A model generated the notes under the pieces. It ran no database searches. It was not told the DNA's origin and saw only the letters and a program-made list of their open reading frames with translations. Positions 4,563-16,244 of a DNA stretch of 40,344 nt are shown here, piece by piece. The stretch lies in the NCBI GenBank assembly GCA_030428165.1, contig JAUIBG010000004.1:1-40344 (forward strand), written 5' to 3'. Positions within the stretch are counted from its first letter, which is position 1; each line of letters starts with the position of its first letter. The position numbers were made by a program, and so were the translations under genes. The DNA is from Actinomycetes bacterium (GTDB taxonomy: Bacteria > Actinomycetota > Actinomycetes > Actinomycetales > Demequinaceae).

Positions 4563-6181
4563 CCGCAGGCATTGCAGGACCCGAGGATGTCCTGGCGCTG
4601 ATCGCGGGGCCGCCGTCGCCTCAGGCGATCACGAGGGCCAGGAACTCCGCCGCGGCACTCGCCGAGGAAGCCGCGACGGTGCGGGCGTTGGCGCTCACGG
4701 GGAGCTCGGCAGCGCTGTCCGCAACGCGCGAGGTGCTCGCCGACGTCGCGTCCGACACGGCGTCGGTCGCTGCGGCGCTCGAGGCGGCGACCGCAGCGAT
4801 CGCGGGATATGCCGAGGCGGTCGAGGCGGAGACGACGTGGGCGCGGTGGGCGTGCATGGCGCTGGTCGATCCGATCGAGTCGATTCGCGCCGCGTGGCAG
4901 GCGGTGGAGCGGATCGACGAGGCTGCGGCCGTAGCGTCCTCGGCGCTGCTGGCGGCCGTGGCAAGCCTCCCGACGACTCCTGGGCGGGCAGGCGGAGCTG
5001 CCCAGGGGATGGTCGGTGGAGACGCCCTGCAGGGCTGGCGCGCCGTCGCCGGCACGGTGACCGGCTGGGTCTCCACGGCCGCGGCGGCGTGCGTTCGAGG
5101 CGCGCGCGAGGCGCTCGCCGACTACGCCACCGCGATGGGCCGTGACCTCATTGGGCTCGGTCTCGCCTGGATGCTCGCCGACGCCGCGACGTCCCATGAG
5201 GTGCGTGCGCGTCTGGTCGCGGTGGCGGCGGACCTCCTGAACGGCGGCGACAACTCTGCGGCGGTCCGCACCGCGGAGGAGCTCGCTCGCCACTACTTCG
5301 CTGCGGGGCTGGGAACGCTCGCGATCGCGCAAGCGCTGCAGCCCACGCCTCGCGTCCACCCCTACGGCTCGGCTCCTGGCGTCACGCACACGCCGCAGAT
5401 GACGTTCGCGGCCCACCAGGCCGTCGCAAGCCCGCCCTCCACCGTCGCGGAGGCGATCACGACGATGGACGCGGTGGACCACGCCGGCGGCGAGGGGGAC
5501 GACGTCACCACCGCAGTCGCCGTCGAGCGGCTGGACTTCGTGGACGAGGACGGCACTGTCCTCGAGACCCGCTGGATCGTCACACTGCCGTCCACCCAGG
5601 AGGGTGCCGCGGGACTGCTCGCTCCGTCGTGGGCCGATGCCGGCGCCCTGGGCGACTGGGAGTCCGACGCCGCGTCGAGGTGGAACAGCGCGACGGGCTC
5701 GTCGCTCACGACCGCCTACGAGAGGGCGGTGCTCGACGCCATGGAGGCCGCCGGCATCGGCGCGGGGGAACCAGTGATGCTTGCAGGGTTCAGCCAGGGC
5801 GGGATGATCGCCGCCGACATCGCGCGCTCGGACGCACACGACTTCCAGATCGACGCCGTGTTCGCGGTCGGGAGTCCGATCGACGACCCGCCCGTGCCCC
5901 CGGGGATCGCGACGGTGCAACTCGCCCACACGGACGACTCGCTCGTGCCGCAGGTCGACGGCGTCTACCGCGCCCCACCGACGGACACGGCAGTCTCGAT
6001 CGTGACGGGCACTGGCGGCCACGACGCAGGTGAGTACGTCGCGACGGCGGAGTCTCTCACGGGGCCGGAGGCGGATCGCGCCGCGGCCTTGCTCGCGGGC
6101 TTCGTGGGTGTCGAGGCGTCAGCCGTGGACGGAGCGGTGGCGATCCAGTCGCACGGCGCGGTCTATGAGTTCAGGGAGTAG
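4559..6181 (+). CDS. Alpha/beta hydrolase with long helical N-terminal region
   Basis: Nucleophile elbow LAGFSQGGM, candidate Asp in AHTDDSLVP and His in GTGGHDAGEY; Ala-rich helical N-terminal half. GTG start overlaps stop of previous gene. Confidence 0.75.
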   Translation: MTAGIAGPEDVLALIAGPPSPQAITRARNSAAALAEEAATVRALALTGSSAALSATREVLADVASDTASVAAALEAATAAIAGYAEAVEAETTWARWACMALVDPIESIRAAWQAVERIDEAAAVASSALLAAVASLPTTPGRAGGAAQGMVGGDALQGWRAVAGTVTGWVSTAAAACVRGAREALADYATAMGRDLIGLGLAWMLADAATSHEVRARLVAVAADLLNGGDNSAAVRTAEELARHYFAAGLGTLAIAQALQPTPRVHPYGSAPGVTHTPQMTFAAHQAVASPPSTVAEAITTMDAVDHAGGEGDDVTTAVAVERLDFVDEDGTVLETRWIVTLPSTQEGAAGLLAPSWADAGALGDWESDAASRWNSATGSSLTTAYERAVLDAMEAAGIGAGEPVMLAGFSQGGMIAADIARSDAHDFQIDAVFAVGSPIDDPPVPPGIATVQLAHTDDSLVPQVDGVYRAPPTDTAVSIVTGTGGHDAGEYVATAESLTGPEADRAAALLAGFVGVEASAVDGAVAIQSHGAVYEFRE

Positions 6182-6186
6182 CGGGC

Positions 6187-7074
6187 TCAGGAGTTGCCGG
6201 CGTAGGTGTGGAGACCCTGGAACACATAGTTCACGACGGTGAAGTTCATGATGAGGGCGACGAAGCCCGCGATCGCGATCCACGGCGCGGCCTTGTTCAG
6301 CCCCGTCGTCGCGCGGGCGTGGAGATAGGCGGCGTAGATCACCCAGATCACGAAGCTCCACACCTCCTTGGGGTCCCAGCCCCAGAAGCGGCCCCAGGCA
6401 TCCTCGGCCCACAACGCGCCGGACATCACGGTGAATGTCCACAGCACGAAGCCCACCGCGTGCAGCCGGTAGGCGTACGAACTGAGCGTCTTCTGGTCGG
6501 GTGCGACGGCGACCATCCGCCAGACGCGCCCCGTGTAGCGCTCGGGATCGAGTTCCCGGCGCTTCTGCAGCAGCTGAAGCACGACGATCAGGAAGCCCAC
6601 CGCGAACACACCGGTCGAGATGATCGCGATCGAGACGTGGATCACGAGCCAGTAGCTCTGCAGCGCGGGGCGCAGGCCGGTCGACTGTCCGTACAGCACC
6701 GCGAGTCCGAGACCTAGCGCGATCGTCGCGAGGCCCGTGACGAGCGGGCCGAGCCACGAGCCGTCGCGCTTGCGGGTGAAGATCATGTAGACGAGGACGG
6801 CGACGAACGACCCTGTGATCGTGTACTCGTACATGTTGGACCACGGCGTGTGCCCGGCCTCGATGCCGCGGGCCACCAGGCCGACCGCGTGCATCACGAG
6901 GCCCACCAGGGTCGTCGCCCTCGCGATGCCGCGCGCACGGGTGCGCACCGAACCGCGCTCCTCCGGGGCGACCTCGGCGAGCGCGGAGACGTGGATGGCC
7001 CCGGCGATCATCGCGATCGCGTAGAGCGTGGTCGCCGCCCATAGCGTCATCACGCTGAGCTCTGCTGCCGTCAT
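6187..7074 (-). CDS. ccsB: Cytochrome c biogenesis protein CcsB (ResC)
   Basis: MTAAELSVMTLWAATTLYAIAMIAGAIHVSALAEVA...; WWD-like signature EDAWGRFWGWDPKEVWSFVIWVIYAAYLHARAT. Confidence 0.95.
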   Translation of the reverse strand: MTAAELSVMTLWAATTLYAIAMIAGAIHVSALAEVAPEERGSVRTRARGIARATTLVGLVMHAVGLVARGIEAGHTPWSNMYEYTITGSFVAVLVYMIFTRKRDGSWLGPLVTGLATIALGLGLAVLYGQSTGLRPALQSYWLVIHVSIAIISTGVFAVGFLIVVLQLLQKRRELDPERYTGRVWRMVAVAPDQKTLSSYAYRLHAVGFVLWTFTVMSGALWAEDAWGRFWGWDPKEVWSFVIWVIYAAYLHARATTGLNKAAPWIAIAGFVALIMNFTVVNYVFQGLHTYAGNS

Positions 7075-8651
7075 CAGTCCTCCGGGGTGGTGGCTGCTGC
7101 CAGGAGTCGGTCACGGGCCTCGGTCGCGTCGGCATCGTGCTCGGGCGCGGAGACTCCGGCGGTGACCACTGTAGCCGCGCCAGGAGCGCCCGAGTTCTCG
7201 GCGAGAAGGTACAGCCGGCGACGAGGCGCGAAGAGGCTCGCGGACAAGCCCAGGAGCGCGAGCACGGCACCCACGAGCACGTACGGCAGCGACGGGTCCT
7301 TGCGCAGGTCGAACGCCGCGAAGCGACTCAGTCCCTCGAAGGTGACCGAACCCGCACCCTCAGGCAGGTCGACGGTCTCACCGATCGCGACGCTCATGAC
7401 GGCCTGCTGCCCGTCGTCGCCGCGCAGCGGTGAGAGGAGCGTCTGGTCCAGCACATAGACGTTCTGCGGGATGCCCTCGTCGAGGCCGAGATCCCCCTGG
7501 TACGCGGTGAACACGATGAGCGGATTGGAGTCGTCCGGGTGGATGGACAGCACGGTCTCCCCGTCGGTGACCGCACTGGGGTACAGCACCGCCTCGAGGC
7601 CCAGCTGCTCACCCACGGTGACGTCCGGCACCTTGACCACACCGGTCGAGGTGTAGGCCGAGTCCTGCGGCAGGAACGGCACGGCGCCCGAGAACACGAC
7701 AGCGCCCGCCGCGTCCCTCACCGTCAGGACCGGCGCGTAGCCGTTTCCCTGCAGATAGACCTTGGCGCCGTTCACGATGATGGGCTCGTTGACCCTCGCG
7801 ACCTGGGCCACCGGCTCCTGACCGGGCTCGGTCACAGTGACCGTCGCGGCGAAGTCCTCGGCGAGGCCAGCCAGGGAGAAGTCCGCCGAGAACTCGTCGA
7901 GCGTGAGGGTGAAGGGCTCGAGGGAGCCCTCGTCGAACCATGCGCCGGACTCGAACGAGTCGTAGCTGACGACCGCATTCGCGAAGCTGTCGCCCACCAC
8001 GATGATGGCCTGCCCGCGGAACGTCAGCAGCGTCGAGGCGCCCACCGCGACCAGGATCCAGATCAGCGCGACGTGGAACAGCAGGTTGCCTGCCTCGCGC
8101 ACGTGCTCGTGCTCGGCGACCAGAGACGCGCGGCCCTCCTCCGACTCGACCCGCGTGCGGTAGCCGCGCCACGAGCCCAGCGACGCGCCGGCGGACTCGA
8201 TCACGGCGCGGGGCGACGCATCGGCCACGTCGGACTGGACCTCCGCCACCGCGGGGCTGAACCTCGTGAGGAGGCGCGGCATCGGCGGGACCGGTTCGCG
8301 CAGGCGCCGCCAGTAGACGCCGATGCGCGGGACGATGCAGCCGATCAGCGACAGGAAGAGGAGCACATAGATCGCGGTGAACCATGCCGAGCCGTAGACG
8401 TCGAACATGCCCAGCGCGTCGAGGAACGGACCCCAGAACGGGTTCTCACTGATGAAGGCGCGCACGGCGGCGGGGTCCTGCGGATCCTGGGGAAGCACGG
8501 AGCCAGGGATCGCGGCGATGGCGAGGACCAGCAGCAGCACGAGCGCGACGCGCATCGAGGTGACCTGACGCCACATCCACCGCAGCCAGCCCTTCACTCC
8601 GAGGCGCGGCGCGTCGGGGTACGCGTAGTTGTCGATCCTCACCCTGGCCAT
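7074..8651 (-). CDS. resB: Cytochrome c biogenesis protein ResB
   Basis: MARVRIDNYAYPDAPRLGVKGWLRWMWRQVTSMRVALVLLLVLAIAAIPGSVLPQ...; ResB family; stop overlaps ccsB start (ATGA). Confidence 0.94.
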   Translation of the reverse strand: MARVRIDNYAYPDAPRLGVKGWLRWMWRQVTSMRVALVLLLVLAIAAIPGSVLPQDPQDPAAVRAFISENPFWGPFLDALGMFDVYGSAWFTAIYVLLFLSLIGCIVPRIGVYWRRLREPVPPMPRLLTRFSPAVAEVQSDVADASPRAVIESAGASLGSWRGYRTRVESEEGRASLVAEHEHVREAGNLLFHVALIWILVAVGASTLLTFRGQAIIVVGDSFANAVVSYDSFESGAWFDEGSLEPFTLTLDEFSADFSLAGLAEDFAATVTVTEPGQEPVAQVARVNEPIIVNGAKVYLQGNGYAPVLTVRDAAGAVVFSGAVPFLPQDSAYTSTGVVKVPDVTVGEQLGLEAVLYPSAVTDGETVLSIHPDDSNPLIVFTAYQGDLGLDEGIPQNVYVLDQTLLSPLRGDDGQQAVMSVAIGETVDLPEGAGSVTFEGLSRFAAFDLRKDPSLPYVLVGAVLALLGLSASLFAPRRRLYLLAENSGAPGAATVVTAGVSAPEHDADATEARDRLLAAATTPED

Positions 8652-9400
8652 CAGATCGCCACCCAGAAGCCGTCGATCCAGCCCTGCAGCTGGCCCACCG
8701 CCTGCTGCCACAGTCCGGTGACGAGCAGCGCTCCCAGGATGATGAGCATCCCGCCGCCGATGCGCATGAGGGTCAGGCGGTGGCGCCGCATCCAGGCGAG
8801 GGCCCTGCCGGAGCGCTCGAGCCACAGCGCGACGACGAAGAAGGGGATGCCGAGCCCCAGGCAGTACGCGACGGCGAGCAGCGCGCCGCGGCCGACGGTG
8901 CCGTCCGACAGGCCGAGCGTGAGCACCGCCGCGAGGGTCGGGCCGATGCACGGGGTCCAGCCCAGCCCGAACACGACACCGAGCAGCGGCGCTCCCCACA
9001 GCGACGCGCGCGGGCTGAGGTGGACCCGCTTCTCGGCCTGCAGGAACGGGATCGCACCCATGAAGCCCATGCCCAGCACGATGACCACAACGCCGAGCAC
9101 CCGGACCACGATGTCGGTGCGCTCGCCCAGCACGAAGCCCAGGCTGGAGACGGCCACGCCGAGCAGCACGAACACCGCGGTGAAGCCCAGCACGAAGAGC
9201 AGCACTCCGAGCGCGAGCCTGGGCTTCGAGCGCGTCTGACCCGTCTGGCCCGCAGTGCCGGACAGCAGCGCGACGTAGCCGGGGATGAGCGGGACGATGC
9301 ACGGCGACGCGAAGCTCACCAGGCCGGCGAGCGCGGCGATCGGAAGCGCCAGCAGGAGCGATCCGCTCAGCACCGTCTCGGAGAACGAGGCGGTGATCAT
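8651..9400 (-). CDS. ccdA: Cytochrome c biogenesis protein CcdA (DsbD-like)
   Basis: LAGLVSFASPCIVPLIPGYVALLSG and GLGWTPCIGPTLAAVLTL, the two conserved Cys-Pro motifs; ATGA overlap with resB. Confidence 0.94.
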   Translation of the reverse strand: MITASFSETVLSGSLLLALPIAALAGLVSFASPCIVPLIPGYVALLSGTAGQTGQTRSKPRLALGVLLFVLGFTAVFVLLGVAVSSLGFVLGERTDIVVRVLGVVVIVLGMGFMGAIPFLQAEKRVHLSPRASLWGAPLLGVVFGLGWTPCIGPTLAAVLTLGLSDGTVGRGALLAVAYCLGLGIPFFVVALWLERSGRALAWMRRHRLTLMRIGGGMLIILGALLVTGLWQQAVGQLQGWIDGFWVAI

Positions 9401-9960
9401 GAAGCGCTCGCGCCCTCCACGAGCGCCTGGAAGGTCGACGCCTCCGCGCGGCCGATGATGCGCGCGGCCACGTTGCCCTCGGCGTCCAGCACGAGGGTGG
9501 TGGGGACCGCGTTGACCGCCACGAGCCCCTGGAGCGAGGCGATGGCCCGGCCGTCGTCGCCCAGGATGGAGGGGTACTGCACGCCGAATGTCTGCTCGAA
9601 CGCCTGGCCGGTCGCGGCATCGTCACGGGTGTTGATCCCGACCACCTGGACGCCGTCCAGCGCGTCGATCGCGACCAGGTCCGGCGCCTCGGCTCGGCAC
9701 GGCGGGCATGCGGCGTACCAGAGGTTCAGCACCACGACCTCGCCGCGGTAGTCGGTGATGTCGACGGCGGAGCCGTCCAACGCGGTGCCGGAGACCTCGA
9801 CGGGCCCCGGCCGCTCACCCGGCTGCCACTCGGTCACCGTGCCGTCGCCGCTGACGTAGCCAGGCGACGTCGCGGCGTCGCTGGGCGCGCAGGAGACGAG
9901 CGCGAAGACAATCGCCAGCACGATCGCGGCGATCAAGATGAAGCGGGCGCCGCGCCTCAC
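9397..9960 (-). CDS. TlpA/ResA-like thiol-disulfide oxidoreductase lipoprotein
   Basis: GTG start VRRGARFILIAAIVLAIVFALVSCAPSD; GEVVVLNLWYAACPPCRAEAPDL (CPPC); VNAVPTTLVLDAEG. Confidence 0.9.
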   Translation of the reverse strand: MRRGARFILIAAIVLAIVFALVSCAPSDAATSPGYVSGDGTVTEWQPGERPGPVEVSGTALDGSAVDITDYRGEVVVLNLWYAACPPCRAEAPDLVAIDALDGVQVVGINTRDDAATGQAFEQTFGVQYPSILGDDGRAIASLQGLVAVNAVPTTLVLDAEGNVAARIIGRAEASTFQALVEGASAS

Positions 9961-10571
9961 GAGGGCACCTCCACCTCGGCCGCGGGCTCGGCGTACCCGA
10001 CGAGCCTGATCAGGTCGTCGTCGATCTCGAACGTCGTCAGGGACGCGAGCGCGCACTCGCGCCGGCGCGGGTCGTGCAGGTACGTGCCGCCCTCGACGGA
10101 GCGGCGGGCGATCCAGATGGGCAGCTGGTGGGAGACGAGCAGCGAGGTCTCGTGCTGCGCGGCCGCGGCGCGGATCGCCGCGCGCATCCGCGTGGCCTGC
10201 TCCTTGTAGGGCTCGCCCCAGCTGGGCTTCCACGGATTGCGGAGCCGCCACAGCTCGGACGCCTTGAGAATGTCCTTCGCCCCGGTGGGGAGCCTGCCGC
10301 CCTCGTAGTCGTTCCCGGCCTCGATGAGGCGGTCGTCCGTCCCGATCTCCAGGCCGTATGCCTCAGCGATCGGCGCGGCGGTCTGCTGCGCCCTGGTCAG
10401 CGGCGACGCGATCACGGCCTCGAGGGGCACCTCGCGGGCGCTGAGATCGGCGGCGACGACTCGCGCCATCTCGCGTCCGGCATCGGACAGCTCGAATCCG
10501 GGGAGTCGCCCGTAGAGGATCTTGTCCGGGTTGTGCACGTGGCCGTGCCGCAGCAGGTGAACGGTGGCCAT
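9957..10571 (-). CDS. Histidine phosphatase family protein
   Basis: MATVHLLRHGHVHNPDKILYGRLPGFELSDAGREMA (LRHG motif), ASPLTRAQQTA, LLVSHQLPI. Confidence 0.92.
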   Translation of the reverse strand: MATVHLLRHGHVHNPDKILYGRLPGFELSDAGREMARVVAADLSAREVPLEAVIASPLTRAQQTAAPIAEAYGLEIGTDDRLIEAGNDYEGGRLPTGAKDILKASELWRLRNPWKPSWGEPYKEQATRMRAAIRAAAAQHETSLLVSHQLPIWIARRSVEGGTYLHDPRRRECALASLTTFEIDDDLIRLVGYAEPAAEVEVPS

Positions 10572-10575
10572 GCGC

Positions 10576-10836
10576 CTATTCTCTCCCAGCCAGGGCGGCC
10601 TCGAGTCCGCGGGCAGTGACGAGGTACCTGGCCACCTCGCGACCGTCCACCTCGACCACGGGGATGGAGAGGCCGTAGCGCTCGGTGAGGGCGTCATCGG
10701 CGTCGATGTCCCGCTCGTCCCAGGCCACGTCGAGCCGGCCGCAGACCTCGGCGACGACGATCCGTGCGTCGTCGCACAGGTGGCAGCCGGGGCGCGAGAA
10801 CAGGGTCACTGGTGGCGCGGCGGGGGCATCGGTCAC
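10576..10836 (-). CDS. Glutaredoxin-like (DUF836/NrdH-like) redox protein
   Basis: GTG start VTDAPAAPPVTLFSRPGCHLCDDARIVVAEV...LSIPVVEVDGREVARYLVT; CxxC motif CHLC and cis-Pro region. Confidence 0.82.
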   Translation of the reverse strand: MTDAPAAPPVTLFSRPGCHLCDDARIVVAEVCGRLDVAWDERDIDADDALTERYGLSIPVVEVDGREVARYLVTARGLEAALAGRE

Positions 10837-10865
10837 GATGACCAGAGTAAAGCGCGTACCTGAGT

Positions 10866-11738
10866 ATGGTTGCGGGTGTGAATGGCGGCCCCGCCAGCGA
10901 CGCCACCGTCGCGGCATTCTTCGACGTGGACAACACGATCATCAGGGGCGCCTCATCCTTCTACCTCGCTCGCGGACTGCAGCAGCGCGGCTACTTCGGC
11001 TTCGCCGACCTCGCGCGCTTCGCCGTCGAGCAGCTCAAGTACCAGCTGTTCGGCGAGTCCAAGGAGCAGGTCGCCGCACTCAAGCGCGAGGCGCTGACCA
11101 TCATCAAAGGCTGGTCGGTCGCCGAGATGGCGGCGGTGGGCGAGGAGATCTACGACGAGGTGCTGGCCTCGCGGATCTACCCCGGCACCCGCGACATCAT
11201 CAAGGGCCACCTCGCGAAGGGCCACGAGGTGTGGCTCGTCACGGCGGCCCCCGTCGAGATCGGGCGGCTCATCGCACGACGCGTGGGCTGCACCGGGGCC
11301 CTGGGCACGGTCGCGGAGCACAAGGACGGCTACTACACGGGCACCCTGGTGGGCGACATGCTCCACGGTCCGGCCAAGCAGGTGGCGGTGCGCGACCTCG
11401 CCGACGAGCGCGGCATCGCCCTGGACGAGTCGTACGCCTACGGCGACTCGATGAACGACGTCCCGATGCTCGAGTCCGTGGGTCACCCCACGGCGATCAA
11501 CCCCGAGCCTCGCCTGCGCAAGCTGGCGAACAAGCGCACGTGGGGCGTGCACGAGTTCCGCGACAGGAACACCAAGGGACGCCGCGGGATCGTGAAGTCC
11601 ACCGTCGCGGGCAGCGTCTGGATCATCCTCGCCGTGTTCCGCATCCTCAAGGCGACGCTGCTCGCGCCCTGGCGTGCATGGAAGGGCCGCAAGGGCGCCC
11701 GCAGGGATGACGTCACCGACCAGCGCTCAGCCGAGTAG
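10866..11738 (+). CDS. HAD-IB family hydrolase (phosphoserine phosphatase-like)
   Basis: ATVAAFFDVDNTIIRGASSFYLA (HAD motif I), VWLVTAAPVEIG, AYGDSMNDVPMLESVGHPTAINPEPRLRKLA. Start may be ATG 10866 or GTG 10878. Confidence 0.9.
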   Translation: MVAGVNGGPASDATVAAFFDVDNTIIRGASSFYLARGLQQRGYFGFADLARFAVEQLKYQLFGESKEQVAALKREALTIIKGWSVAEMAAVGEEIYDEVLASRIYPGTRDIIKGHLAKGHEVWLVTAAPVEIGRLIARRVGCTGALGTVAEHKDGYYTGTLVGDMLHGPAKQVAVRDLADERGIALDESYAYGDSMNDVPMLESVGHPTAINPEPRLRKLANKRTWGVHEFRDRNTKGRRGIVKSTVAGSVWIILAVFRILKATLLAPWRAWKGRKGARRDDVTDQRSAE

Positions 11739-14052
11739 ACCCGTGGGACGTCCGCTGGTCATCACGGACGAGTTCGCCCGCGCGCTCGACCTGCTCCACT
11801 CCGGCAGCAGCCTGTTCCTCACGGGCAAGGCAGGCACCGGAAAGTCGACGCTGATCCGGCGCTTCCTCGAGGAGACGGACCGCCGCGCGATCACCGTCGC
11901 TCCCACGGGGATCGCAGCGCTCAACGTCGACGGCTACACCATCCACCGGCTGTTCTCGTTCCCGACCGGCGTCACGGCCGAGGACGTGAGGGGGCCGCGC
12001 TACTTCCCTGGCCGCTTCGCCAGCACTCTGGCGAACCTCGAGATCCTGATCGTCGACGAGGCGTCGATGGTGCGGGCGGACCTCTTCGACGCCCTCGCGG
12101 CCGCGCTCGAGCGGTTCGGGCCGCGACGCGACGAGCCGTTCGGTGGCGTCCAGCTCGTGCTGGTGGGCGACCTCTACCAGCTGCCGCCGGTGGTGACCGA
12201 TGCCGAGGCGCCCTACATCGACGCCACGTACGCGACGCCCTACTTCTTCTCCGCCCACGCCTTCGACAGGACGGCGTTCCCCACCGTCGAGCTCACCACG
12301 GTCTTCCGCCAGCAGGGCGACGACCGCATGGTCGACCTGCTGAACTCGGTGCGGGACGGGGCACTGCTCGACTCCGCGCGCGCGGAGCTCAATCTCCGCA
12401 CTGACCGGGACTTCGAACCGCCGCGCGACGAGTTCTGGCTCACCCTCGCCACGACCAACCGGATCGTCGGCGCGCGCAACCGGCAGATGCTCGAGCAGCT
12501 CGGCGCCCAGGTGCTCCGGTACACCGCGGTGATGCACGGCGACCGCGACGGCTTCGAGATGCCCACCGACGAGCACCTGGACCTCGCCGTCGGCGCTCAG
12601 GTGATGCTGCTGACCAACGACCCCGCAGACCGCTGGGCGAACGGCACGCTGGGACGCATCGAGACCCTGGGCAGCGACGGCGACGGTCCGGTCGTGTCCG
12701 TGCGGCTGCGCGACGGGCGCAGCGTCGCCGTGCGCGAGCACACGTGGGAGATCACGCGCCCGCGTGTGGAGGGCGGCAGTCTCACCCACGATGTGATCGG
12801 CACGTTCACGCAGCTCCCGATGAAGCTCGCCTGGGCGATCACGATCCACAAGAGCCAGGGCCAGACGCTCGACCGCGTGGTCGTCGATCTCACGGGAGGC
12901 ACGTTCGCCAACGGACAGCTCTATGTCGCGCTGAGCCGGTGCACTTCGATGGAGGGCCTGGTACTGCGACGCGAGGTCCTCCCTCGCGACCTCAAGTCGG
13001 ACATCAGGATCAGGCGGTTCCTCGCGAACGCAGGCGCCGCCCGCACCACGAGTGCCGGCCTCGCATTCCTGTCGGTCATCAGCATCGGGAACCACGGTGA
13101 CAGGTACCGGCCGCGTCCCATCGAGATCGCCGTGGTCACCGACGACGGGGACGAGGCGGTCACCGTCGTCAACCCGACGAGTGACCTGTTCAACGCGCAG
13201 ACCGACTACGGGATCACCACCGCCGATGTGCAGCTCGCGCCGCTCCTGCCCGAGGCGTGGGCGGCGCTGTCTCCGCTGCTGGCGGGCCGCGTGCCGGTCG
13301 GAGTCGGGATCGACGAGACGCTCGCGCTGGTCGACTTCGAGCTCAAGCGCTGTGGACTCGTGGAGCGGCTCCCCATCGGGCGGGAGCTGCCGCCGGGCTC
13401 GATCGCGCGCGCCCACCGCGAGCTGCTCGCCTCACCGTCGGCGCTGAAGAGGGCACGGGCGATGGCCGATGCGGTGCGGCACCACGGGTGGGCGTCCACC
13501 GAGGGCGCCCAAGGCACCCCATTCCCGGCGCATCCGCGCGGGCGCGGCTACCTTCTCGCCCGCACCACCGGACCTGGGGGGCAGACCGGGCCCGAAGGCT
13601 TCGTGGTGGGCGGCAACCTCTCCGCTCAGGACGATGCGGCAGCGATTCTGGCCGAGTCGCTGGCGGCAGCCTGGGAACGCCTCGCGGACAAGAGCGCGGA
13701 GACACTGACGAGGCTGCGCACTGTCGAGCACCACTACGGGGTGCGGGTCCTGCCGGATCGCGTCGTGCTCGCGGATGAGCTGGACCTTGAGACCCTGCTG
13801 CTGCCAGGCGCCAGGGTGTGCTTCACCGGCACGGTGGTGGACGGCTCGGGGCGGGTGCTCGAGCGCGTCGAGATGGAGGGCATCGCTGCGCGGTGCGGGC
13901 TCGTTCCGGCGCCCAGCGTCACGAAGTCGAGGACCGATGCGCTGGTCGTCGCCGAGCGCGGGACGCAGTCCTCGAAGGCGCGCAAGGCGAACGACTATGG
14001 CACGCCGGTCATCGCCGCGGCCGACTTCCTCGAATGGGCGGCGGGGCGCTAG
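11707..14052 (+). CDS. PIF1/RecD-like superfamily 1 helicase with degenerate DnaQ-like segment and C-terminal BRCT domain
   Basis: Walker A LTGKAGTGKSTLI; LIVDEASMV; VLVGDLYQLPPV; AWAITIHKSQGQTLDRVVVDL; QLYVALSRCTSMEGLVL. C-terminus GARVCFTGTVVDGSGRVLERVEMEGIAARCGLVPAPSVTKSRTDALVVAERGTQSSKARKANDYGTPVIAAADFLEW matches a BRCT pattern. Confidence 0.88.
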   Translation: MTSPTSAQPSRPVGRPLVITDEFARALDLLHSGSSLFLTGKAGTGKSTLIRRFLEETDRRAITVAPTGIAALNVDGYTIHRLFSFPTGVTAEDVRGPRYFPGRFASTLANLEILIVDEASMVRADLFDALAAALERFGPRRDEPFGGVQLVLVGDLYQLPPVVTDAEAPYIDATYATPYFFSAHAFDRTAFPTVELTTVFRQQGDDRMVDLLNSVRDGALLDSARAELNLRTDRDFEPPRDEFWLTLATTNRIVGARNRQMLEQLGAQVLRYTAVMHGDRDGFEMPTDEHLDLAVGAQVMLLTNDPADRWANGTLGRIETLGSDGDGPVVSVRLRDGRSVAVREHTWEITRPRVEGGSLTHDVIGTFTQLPMKLAWAITIHKSQGQTLDRVVVDLTGGTFANGQLYVALSRCTSMEGLVLRREVLPRDLKSDIRIRRFLANAGAARTTSAGLAFLSVISIGNHGDRYRPRPIEIAVVTDDGDEAVTVVNPTSDLFNAQTDYGITTADVQLAPLLPEAWAALSPLLAGRVPVGVGIDETLALVDFELKRCGLVERLPIGRELPPGSIARAHRELLASPSALKRARAMADAVRHHGWASTEGAQGTPFPAHPRGRGYLLARTTGPGGQTGPEGFVVGGNLSAQDDAAAILAESLAAAWERLADKSAETLTRLRTVEHHYGVRVLPDRVVLADELDLETLLLPGARVCFTGTVVDGSGRVLERVEMEGIAARCGLVPAPSVTKSRTDALVVAERGTQSSKARKANDYGTPVIAAADFLEWAAGR

Positions 14053-14678: not shown

Positions 14679-14852
14679 TCGTCGACTCTCCTCGAATTCG
14701 CAGTCAAGCGTTCTATCGGCTGGCTGCACGTTCTACTGTAGGGGCTGTTGTGACAGATGTGAAGGAAACGCGGGGCCTTCCACGATCGTTCCCCGGCCGC
14801 GCGTAGCCTGGGCTGAGGCGGTGCCGGACACGGCGCCGAGGTGAGGAGGCGC

Positions 14853-16244
14853 ATGAGCAGGGCCACCTCTGTTCGCGAGCGCCTGTCGCTGTGGGTGGGC
14901 CACGTCGCCCAGCACTACCCCGCTCGCCTCGCCATGGGCGCCTTCGGCGCCGTCATCCTCGTCGTGACCGGTCTCCTGATGCTCCCGTTCTCGACCGCGT
15001 CGGGCAAGAGCGCGTCGTTCGTCGACGCGCTGTTCACCGCGACATCCGCCGTGTGCGTCACGGGACTCACGGTGGTCGACACCGGCACCTACTGGTCGGA
15101 CTTCGGCCGCGCCGTCATCCTGCTGGGAATCAAGGTGGGCGGACTGGGCGTGATGACGCTCGCGAGCGTGCTGGCGCTGGCGGTCTCGCGGCGGCTCGGG
15201 GTCACCCAGCGCATGCTCGCCGCTGGCGAGGCGCGCGCCTCCGGCCTGGGCGACGTCAAGCGGATGCTCATCATCATCGTGGTGTTCTCGTCCGCGGTGG
15301 AGCTCATCATCACCGCGATCCTCTTCCCACGGTTCTGGATCGACGGACTGCCGCCGCTGAGCGCGCTGTGGCACGCCGTCTTCTATGCGGTCTCCGCCTT
15401 CAACAACGCGGGCTTCGTGCCCAATGCCGGCGGACTGGTCGAGTTCACCGGCGACTTCTGGGTGATCGTGCCGATCGGCATCGGCGTGCTGGTGGGAGCC
15501 CTGGGCTTCCCGGTCTACGTCAACCTCATGGAGTCCTGGAACAAGCCGCGCAACTGGTCGCTGCACACCAAGCTCACCCTGTGGATGGTCGTGGTCCTGA
15601 CCGGCATCTCGACGGTCTTCCTCGGCGTCTTCGAATGGAACAACCCCGCCACCTACGGCGGGGAGTCCGTGCCCACGAGGCTGCTGCACATCTTCTTCGG
15701 CGGCATCAACCAGAGATCGGGCGGCTTCGCCGCGATCAGCCACGAGAACATGACGCAGCAGACGTGGCTGCTCGAGGACGTGATGATGTTCATCGGCGGC
15801 GGCTCGGGAGGCACCGCAGGCGGCATCCGCATCACGACGCTCGCGGTGCTGCTGCTCGCGATCGTGGCCGAGGCGAGGGGCCGTCGCGACATGGAGGCCT
15901 TCGGCAAGCGCATCGGCACCCAGGTGCTCCGCACGGCCGTCGCGATCACGCTCGTGTCGCTGGCCTTCGTGCTGCTCGGGTCCACCGCGGTGCTGTTCCA
16001 GACGGCGCACCTCGGATGGCGGCTGGACGAGGTGCTCTACGAGGTAGTGTCGGCCTATGCGACGTGCGGACTGTCCGTCCTCTCGGCAGAGCAGACTGCA
16101 GCGATGCCGGACTCCACGAAGTACACGCTCACGCTGCTCATGTTCATCGGCCGCGTCGGCACGACGACCATCGCGGCGGCGCTCGCGCTGAACTCCCAGC
16201 GTCGAGTGATCCGCTACCCGTCGGGGAGGATCCTCATTGGCTAA
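14853..16244 (+). CDS. TrkH/KtrB family potassium uptake protein
   Basis: Selectivity-filter type repeats FTATSAVCVTGLTVVDTGTYWS, SAFNNAGFVPNAGG, NQRSGGFAAI, YATCGLSVL. Confidence 0.93.
   Translation: MSRATSVRERLSLWVGHVAQHYPARLAMGAFGAVILVVTGLLMLPFSTASGKSASFVDALFTATSAVCVTGLTVVDTGTYWSDFGRAVILLGIKVGGLGVMTLASVLALAVSRRLGVTQRMLAAGEARASGLGDVKRMLIIIVVFSSAVELIITAILFPRFWIDGLPPLSALWHAVFYAVSAFNNAGFVPNAGGLVEFTGDFWVIVPIGIGVLVGALGFPVYVNLMESWNKPRNWSLHTKLTLWMVVVLTGISTVFLGVFEWNNPATYGGESVPTRLLHIFFGGINQRSGGFAAISHENMTQQTWLLEDVMMFIGGGSGGTAGGIRITTLAVLLLAIVAEARGRRDMEAFGKRIGTQVLRTAVAITLVSLAFVLLGSTAVLFQTAHLGWRLDEVLYEVVSAYATCGLSVLSAEQTAAMPDSTKYTLTLLMFIGRVGTTTIAAALALNSQRRVIRYPSGRILIG

What the first reader, a model, noticed from the sequence alone, without database searches (positions are those of the whole stretch)
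11707..14052. Three-part fusion: PIF1-type helicase + degenerate DnaQ-like exonuclease domain + BRCT
Seen: after a complete PIF1/RecD-like helicase (motifs I to VI) the protein continues with FLSVISIGNHGDRYRPRPIEIAVVTDDGDEAVTVVNPTSDLFNAQTDYGITTADVQLAPLLPEAWAALSPLLAGRVPVGVGIDETLALVDFELKRCGL, which follows the layout of a DnaQ/epsilon exonuclease (..DVETTG..IIEIAVV..NP..GIT..DV..AP..VGHN..FD..L..EL.R.G). The residues where the catalytic DxE and later Asp should sit read SxG and ET, so the domain looks catalytically dead. The C-terminal about 75 aa match BRCT domains of the kind found in DnaQ-BRCT proteins. Inference: a helicase that uses a pseudo-exonuclease as a binding module, perhaps for DNA ends or the sliding clamp, plus BRCT for targeting. 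This could be an uncharacterised actinobacterial repair or replication-restart enzyme.
Basis: partly seen in the sequence, partly recalled or inferred. Interest (0 to 1): 0.72.

Follow-up and report, generated by a model that had tools for sequence, protein, structure and literature searches.

The report
Helicase fused to dead exonuclease-BRCT
An actinobacterial gene joins an intact-looking Pif1 DNA helicase to a whole second protein, a DnaQ-type exonuclease with a BRCT tail, in which every catalytic residue of the exonuclease is lost while the fold is still kept by selection, so the nuclease has probably become a binding module; I found no description of this arrangement.

Summary
Window 11707-14052 (+) encodes one 781-aa protein: an intact Pif1-family helicase (residues ~17-440), a DnaQ/DEDDh-fold domain (~450-593), a short linker and a C-terminal BRCT (~697-781). 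80 relatives were fetched from other Actinomycetota genomes; nearly all carry the same fusion. AlphaFold plus Foldseek give a DnaQ fold, and residues 445-781 are collinear with complete stand-alone DEDDh-linker-BRCT proteins that keep all five catalytic residues (hhalign E 8e-39). In 46 compared fusion proteins those five residues are lost, yet the domain is as constrained as the helicase (dN/dS 0.145 against 0.159). Best reading: an accessory 5'-3' helicase whose C-terminal half is a pseudo-nuclease/BRCT tether for DNA or a partner protein. Beyond the finding: the parent family is PADLOC's uncharacterised phage-defence candidate PDC-S48; the gene is patchy (13 of 37 same-genus genomes) and in relatives the flanking genes lie together without it; neighbours of homologues held more defence-like genes than control regions. 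A defence role is a lead, not shown. The helicase and binding activities are inferred. New variant of a known kind.

The parts
11707..14052 (+). whole gene, 781 aa, ATG start at 11707 (overlaps the stop of the upstream HAD-family gene by 32 bases; a GTG at 11743 is an alternative start and would lose only 12 unconserved residues)
   Evidence: family alignment starts at about residue 17-20
11755..13026 (+). Pif1-family SF1B helicase core, residues 17-440, all motifs intact
   Evidence: Foldseek of the full model 8bns E 1.8e-43
13054..13485 (+). DnaQ/DEDDh-fold pseudo-exonuclease, residues 450-593
13081..13089 (+). S459-I460-G461, where the catalytic D-x-E of DEDDh exonucleases should be
   Evidence: T or S in 41 of 46 and G in 46 of 46 fusion proteins
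13318..13320 (+). T538, position of the second catalytic Asp (Asp in 2 of 46 fusion proteins)
13435..13452 (+). P577 to R582, positions of the catalytic His and last Asp (His in 0, Asp in 0 of 46; R582 in 40)
13504..13791 (+). linker, residues 600-695, with two helices at 644-677 that align with the C-terminal part of the TerB-like segment of the stand-alone relatives; the least constrained part
13795..14049 (+). BRCT domain, residues 697-781
10866..11738 (+). upstream HAD-family gene; in same-genus genomes it is followed by the TrkH gene with no helicase between: left edge of the site where the helicase gene sits
14841..16244 (+). TrkH-type K+ transporter gene, right edge of the same site
   Evidence: identity of the protein family from sequence

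Best explanation
The gene encodes an accessory Pif1-type 5'-3' DNA helicase to which a complete DEDDh-linker-BRCT protein has been joined at the C-terminus (shown by homology). After or before the fusion the exonuclease lost all five catalytic residues and the neighbouring substrate-contact residues (shown), a helical segment between exo motifs II and III was deleted, and a new set of invariant residues arose (G461, R468, P471, L514, W518, P530, D536, K547; shown). The pseudo-nuclease is therefore kept as a structural or binding module (strongly supported by selection), most likely one that holds single-stranded DNA, a 3' end or a partner protein while the helicase translocates 5'-3' (inferred), with BRCT as a further protein- or DNA-end-binding contact (inferred). 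The enzyme acts on stalled or broken DNA or on foreign DNA; which of the two is not settled.
For: Collinear profile match of the whole C-terminal half to stand-alone proteins with intact DEDDh; DnaQ fold; catalytic positions lost in 46 of 46 with E to G invariant; also in the most divergent member L105/L126; pseudo-exonuclease dN/dS 0.145 against helicase 0.159 and linker 0.374 over 121 close pairs; nine invariant residues not conserved in the stand-alone proteins; helicase motifs intact.
Against: No structure of domain arrangement: the full model has pTM 0.75 and gives no tested interface. No biochemical data. Binding of DNA ends or of any partner is untested; the conserved surface could equally serve folding or an intramolecular contact with the helicase.
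Confidence: 0.62

Rival explanations
1. The protein is a single-gene (or loosely associated) anti-phage defence factor: the C-terminal half is a remodelled PDC-S48 protein that recognises foreign DNA ends or replication intermediates and the helicase acts on them. This rival concerns the pathway, not the architecture.
For: The intact stand-alone relatives are full-length members of PADLOC PDC-S48 (E to 1e-173) and the fusion's C-terminal half hits the same models (PDLC05027 9.2e-23). Patchy: 13 of 37 same-genus genomes, 16 of 346 genomes of the class. Position not conserved; relatives have the flanking genes together without it. Neighbours of 22 homologues hit PADLOC models at E <= 1e-20 for about 8-9 of 121 proteins (type I restriction enzyme, type III-like methyltransferase, MkoC-like helicase, AbiEi, PDC-S01 and others) against 1 of 119 in control regions; Fisher p about 0.01-0.02 if 8-9.
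Against: PDC families are candidates by genomic association and described as still uncharacterised (PMC12482510); no paper on PDC-S48 was found. At least one neighbour hit (a Ser/Thr kinase in L020) is probably housekeeping; the count of distinct proteins is partly reconstructed; control regions were not from the same genomes. The window's own neighbours are housekeeping genes. No phage record with a credible copy.
Confidence: 0.3
2. The middle domain has kept or re-invented catalysis with other residues (for example around invariant E473, D493, D536, E545).
For: Several acidic residues are invariant in the fusion family, D536 newly so and two positions from a lost catalytic Asp.
Against: E473, D493 and E545 are equally conserved in the intact stand-alone proteins, where they are not the catalytic residues, so they are probably structural. 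Four of the five catalytic positions are never acidic or His in 46 sequences, and substrate-contact residues (T-T, H-N, F) are gone too.
Confidence: 0.06
3. The C-terminal half is a decaying passenger of a gene-fusion event without function.
For: Complete loss of the active site; shortened linker with relaxed constraint.
Against: Purifying selection equal to that of the helicase, 24 invariant columns across Demequina, Brachybacterium, Brevibacterium, Leucobacter, mycobacteria, Aeromicrobium and others.
Confidence: 0.02

Closest known systems
Bacterial Pif1 helicases (Bacteroides, Thermus oshimai, Deferribacter, Sulfurihydrogenibium), some with a C-terminal WYL domain (PMC9964779)
   Same: Same helicase family (PDB 8bns E 2.8e-102) and same principle of a C-terminal accessory module thought to add nucleic-acid contacts.
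   Different: Accessory module is a pseudo-DEDDh exonuclease plus BRCT, not WYL; that paper states that most mesophilic Pif1 have only short extensions.
PADLOC PDC-S48 / PRK06063-like stand-alone DEDDh-linker-BRCT proteins
   Same: Residues 445-781 are collinear with these proteins end to end; they are the source of the C-terminal half.
   Different: They keep all five catalytic residues and a TerB-like segment and carry no helicase.
Gram-positive DinG (DEDDh exonuclease + XPD-type helicase; PDB 8zef, 9ii8)
   Same: Best Foldseek match of the middle domain; also one polypeptide with a DnaQ-fold domain and a 5'-3' helicase.
   Different: Different helicase superfamily (SF2), opposite domain order, no BRCT.
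RecD2 / RecD helicases
   Same: Same SF1B superfamily; weak profile hits.
   Different: Far below the family cut-offs (81 of 500 bits and 52 of 310 bits); Pif1 is the closer family.

Membership tests
Pif1-family SF1B helicase | match above the curated Pfam PIF1 cut-off | tested here: met
   98.9 bits, cut-off 25.9
Pif1-family SF1B helicase | intact Walker A, Walker B and motifs III-VI, with the PFGGxQ stretch before GDxxQLPP | tested here: met
   invariant columns in 37 homologues
Pif1-family SF1B helicase | fold of solved Pif1 cores | tested here: met
   Foldseek 8bns E 1.8e-43, target TM 0.79
Pif1-family SF1B helicase | 5'-3' ATP-dependent unwinding | not testable with these tools
   needs purified protein
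DEDDh exonuclease (active) | RNase H-like DnaQ fold | tested here: met
DEDDh exonuclease (active) | five catalytic residues D-E-D-H-D | tested here: not met
   S459, G461, T538, P577, R582; lost across 46 fusion proteins
PADLOC PDC-S48 | full-length match to the model | tested here: not met
   partial match only, 82.7 bits in two stretches, against 325-574 bits in the stand-alone proteins
PADLOC PDC-S48 | common descent with the C-terminal half | tested here: met
   hhalign of A1 and A5, 343 columns, E 7.9e-39
BRCT domain protein | BRCT fold and sequence profile | tested here: met
   PRK06063 BRCT part in 46 of 46; Pfam BRCT in 17 of 46; strand-helix order in the model
RecD2 | NCBIfam equivalog cut-off | tested here: not met
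   81 of 500 bits

The most novel reading that the evidence does not exclude
An unrecognised, horizontally moving defence or DNA-surveillance helicase of Actinomycetota in which a candidate anti-phage exonuclease has been turned into a catalytically dead sensor of DNA ends that recruits or gates a Pif1 motor, through a newly evolved conserved surface (G461, R468, P471, W518, D536, K547).
Probability: 0.22. Interest if true: 0.75.

Novelty: new variant of a known kind. Interest (0 to 1): 0.5.

Why it matters
Bacterial Pif1 helicases have few assigned roles. This family offers a natural case in which a nuclease fold was recruited, killed and kept beside a motor, with the living ancestor-like protein available for side-by-side tests. 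It would show what a DnaQ fold is good for without catalysis, and it links a Pif1 subfamily found in mycobacteria and other actinobacteria to an untested phage-defence candidate family.

Tried and rejected
Fusion as an assembly or frameshift artefact: rejected, same fusion in dozens of independent genomes. RecD2/RecD identity: rejected. Direct Pfam/PDB sequence search with the middle domain: nothing, so profile-profile and fold comparison were needed. Pif1 fused to an intact DEDDh domain as an intermediate: none found in 296 + 346 genomes of phylum and class; other Pif1 genes there are about 410-575 aa where the frame is tight, and the A1/A2 searches gave no intact DEDDh in them. Conserved operon partner: none across genera; only Demequina genomes share neighbours with each other, and Brevibacterium relatives share an upstream methyltransferase (one larger all-against-all run timed out). 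Phage or plasmid carriage: no plasmid hit; one 'phage' record is an unverified faecal scaffold with bacterial-looking genes; IMG/VR gave one BRCT-only match. Literature: no paper combines Pif1 with DnaQ and BRCT or with an exonuclease domain in actinobacteria, in an open-access library only. The first dN/dS run mixed in saturated pairs and was replaced. Whole-genome download was not available.

Full report
What is there. The window belongs to an actinobacterial genome of 2.4 Mb in 229 contigs, in the same genus as genomes whose copy of this gene is identical to that of named Demequina strains. ORF 11707-14052 (+) gives 781 residues without an internal stop. The ATG overlaps the stop of the upstream HAD-family gene by 32 bases; a GTG at 11743 is an alternative start, and family conservation begins only near residue 17-20.

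Helicase. Residues 17-440 are a Pif1-family core: Pfam PIF1 98.9 bits against a cut-off of 25.9, solved bacterial Pif1 8bns at E 2.8e-102 by sequence and 1.8e-43 by fold. All nucleotide- and DNA-contact motifs are present and invariant or nearly so in 37 aligned homologues. RecD2 and RecD profiles match far below their cut-offs.

Middle domain. No sequence library recognises it directly in the window protein. An AlphaFold model of residues 425-781 built on 46 homologues is confident (pLDDT 91.3, pTM 0.88), and Foldseek places the domain among DnaQ/DEDDh exonucleases: the exonuclease domain of S. aureus DinG, the DnaQ domain of S. thermophilus, E. coli epsilon, TREX and RNase T (query TM values are low because the query holds three segments). 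A profile of the domain found, in other actinobacterial genomes, stand-alone proteins of about 390-430 aa with an intact DEDDh exonuclease, a TerB-like segment and a BRCT. Profile-profile comparison of the whole C-terminal half with ten of these aligns 343 columns end to end, probability 99.96%, E 7.9e-39; the domain alone gives 98.5%, 3.7e-15. So the C-terminal half is not two separate acquisitions; it is one whole DEDDh-linker-BRCT protein.

Catalytic death and retention. The five catalytic residues correspond to S459, G461, T538, P577 and R582. In 46 fusion proteins they read T/S (41 of 46), G (46 of 46), T/Q/A and others (Asp in 2), never His, and R (40 of 46, never Asp). Residues next to the active site that are invariant or nearly so in the stand-alone proteins (T-T after D-x-E, H-N and F before the second Asp, H in the GIT motif) are gone as well, and a segment between exo motifs II and III is deleted. 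In contrast, G464, R470, E473, N489, P490, D493, P512, E545 and A579 are kept in both groups, and G461, R468, P471, L514, W518, P530, D536 and K547 are invariant only in the fusion. Nei-Gojobori dN/dS over 121 close pairs is 0.145 for the domain, 0.159 for the helicase, 0.225 for BRCT and 0.374 for the linker (pairs are not independent, so this is a comparison of parts, not a test). The domain is thus dead as a DEDDh nuclease but under full selection. The most divergent fusion found (L105/L126) shows the same losses. No Pif1 with an intact DEDDh domain was found in the searches of phylum and class, so whether the loss came before or after the fusion is open.

Distribution. 80 loci were kept from the bacterial genome collection, in Demequina, Brachybacterium, Brevibacterium, Leucobacter, Pseudoclavibacter, Acidipropionibacterium, Nesterenkonia, Garicola, Isoptericola, Actinotalea, Aeromicrobium, Pilimelia and many mycobacteria; one (L061) was not open in a single frame and two were cut by contig ends or misread in my extraction (L060, L079), and these were left out. 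In a sample of the class 16 of 346 genomes hold the fusion; in the window's genus 13 of 37. In the tree the window protein lies on a long branch outside the well-supported Demequina clade (SH-aLRT 100), its exact place unresolved. In eleven same-genus relatives the HAD gene has the same upstream neighbours as in the window, and in five of them TrkH is found about 0.65-0.95 kb downstream with no helicase gene between; other loci ended too early to tell. Genomes such as G001, G011, G012 and G636 carry the helicase elsewhere. The gene therefore behaves as a single-gene accessory element that has moved; mechanism unknown.

Pathway. PADLOC's model PDC-S48 describes the stand-alone relatives over their full length (E 2e-97 to 4e-173) and the fusion's C-terminal half in part. 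These are candidates and described as still uncharacterised (PMC12482510); no paper naming PDC-S48 was found. I tested neighbourhoods: of 121 neighbour proteins from 22 homologous loci, 64 PADLOC models were hit at E <= 1e-20; of 119 proteins chosen in the same way from 20 arbitrary actinobacterial regions, one. The 64 models collapse to about 8-9 proteins: a type I restriction enzyme (L066), a type III-like methyltransferase (L055, conserved in L064 and L060), an MkoC-like helicase (L004), AbiEi (L042, by coordinates), PDC-S01 (L071, by coordinates), a Ser/Thr kinase that is probably housekeeping (L020), and hits named SoFic, HEC-01B and mad3 not traced to a locus. With 8-9 against 1 Fisher's p is 0.01-0.02, but the control was not taken from the same genomes and the neighbour count is partly reconstructed. 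This is a lead. The window's own neighbours are ordinary housekeeping genes.

Mechanism. From established knowledge of Pif1 enzymes, the helicase should load on single strands and move 5'-3'. WYL domains at the same position in some thermophilic Pif1 are modelled to add nucleic-acid contacts (PMC9964779). By analogy the pseudo-DEDDh domain most likely supplies an additional contact for a strand, a 3' end or a partner, and BRCT a further contact. Architecture, homology and catalytic loss are shown; binding, partner and pathway are inferred.

Judgement. The new points are the source of the C-terminal half, the family-wide and complete loss with retained selection, the patchy mobile occurrence and the tie to a phage-defence candidate. 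It is a new variant of a known kind (Pif1 with a C-terminal accessory module).

Noticed in passing
L055:3531-4802, L064:3484-4794, L060:3779-5077: Brevibacterium relatives share a type III-like DNA methyltransferase directly upstream of the helicase gene, the only conserved non-Demequina neighbour seen.
   Followed up: partly
G003 C1:2619150-2632985 (same genus as the window): Three DEDDh-BRCT-like genes or fragments lie within 14 kb, one with an internal stop; looks like a small cluster of stand-alone relatives.
   Followed up: no
L195 (MT835623.1) 7479-10994: An unverified 'Bacteriophage sp.' record from faeces holds a C-terminal half 56.5% identical over 353 residues; neighbouring genes (TauE, rhodanese, CAAX protease, M78 peptidase) look bacterial, so the record is probably mislabelled.
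   Followed up: partly
L061 (Flaviflexus massiliensis) 6001-8323: The homologue does not stay open in one frame; either a pseudogene or a sequencing error.
   Followed up: no
window 11707-11738: 32-base overlap between the HAD-family gene and the ATG of the helicase gene at the site where relatives have no helicase; the junction may record how the gene arrived.
   Followed up: no
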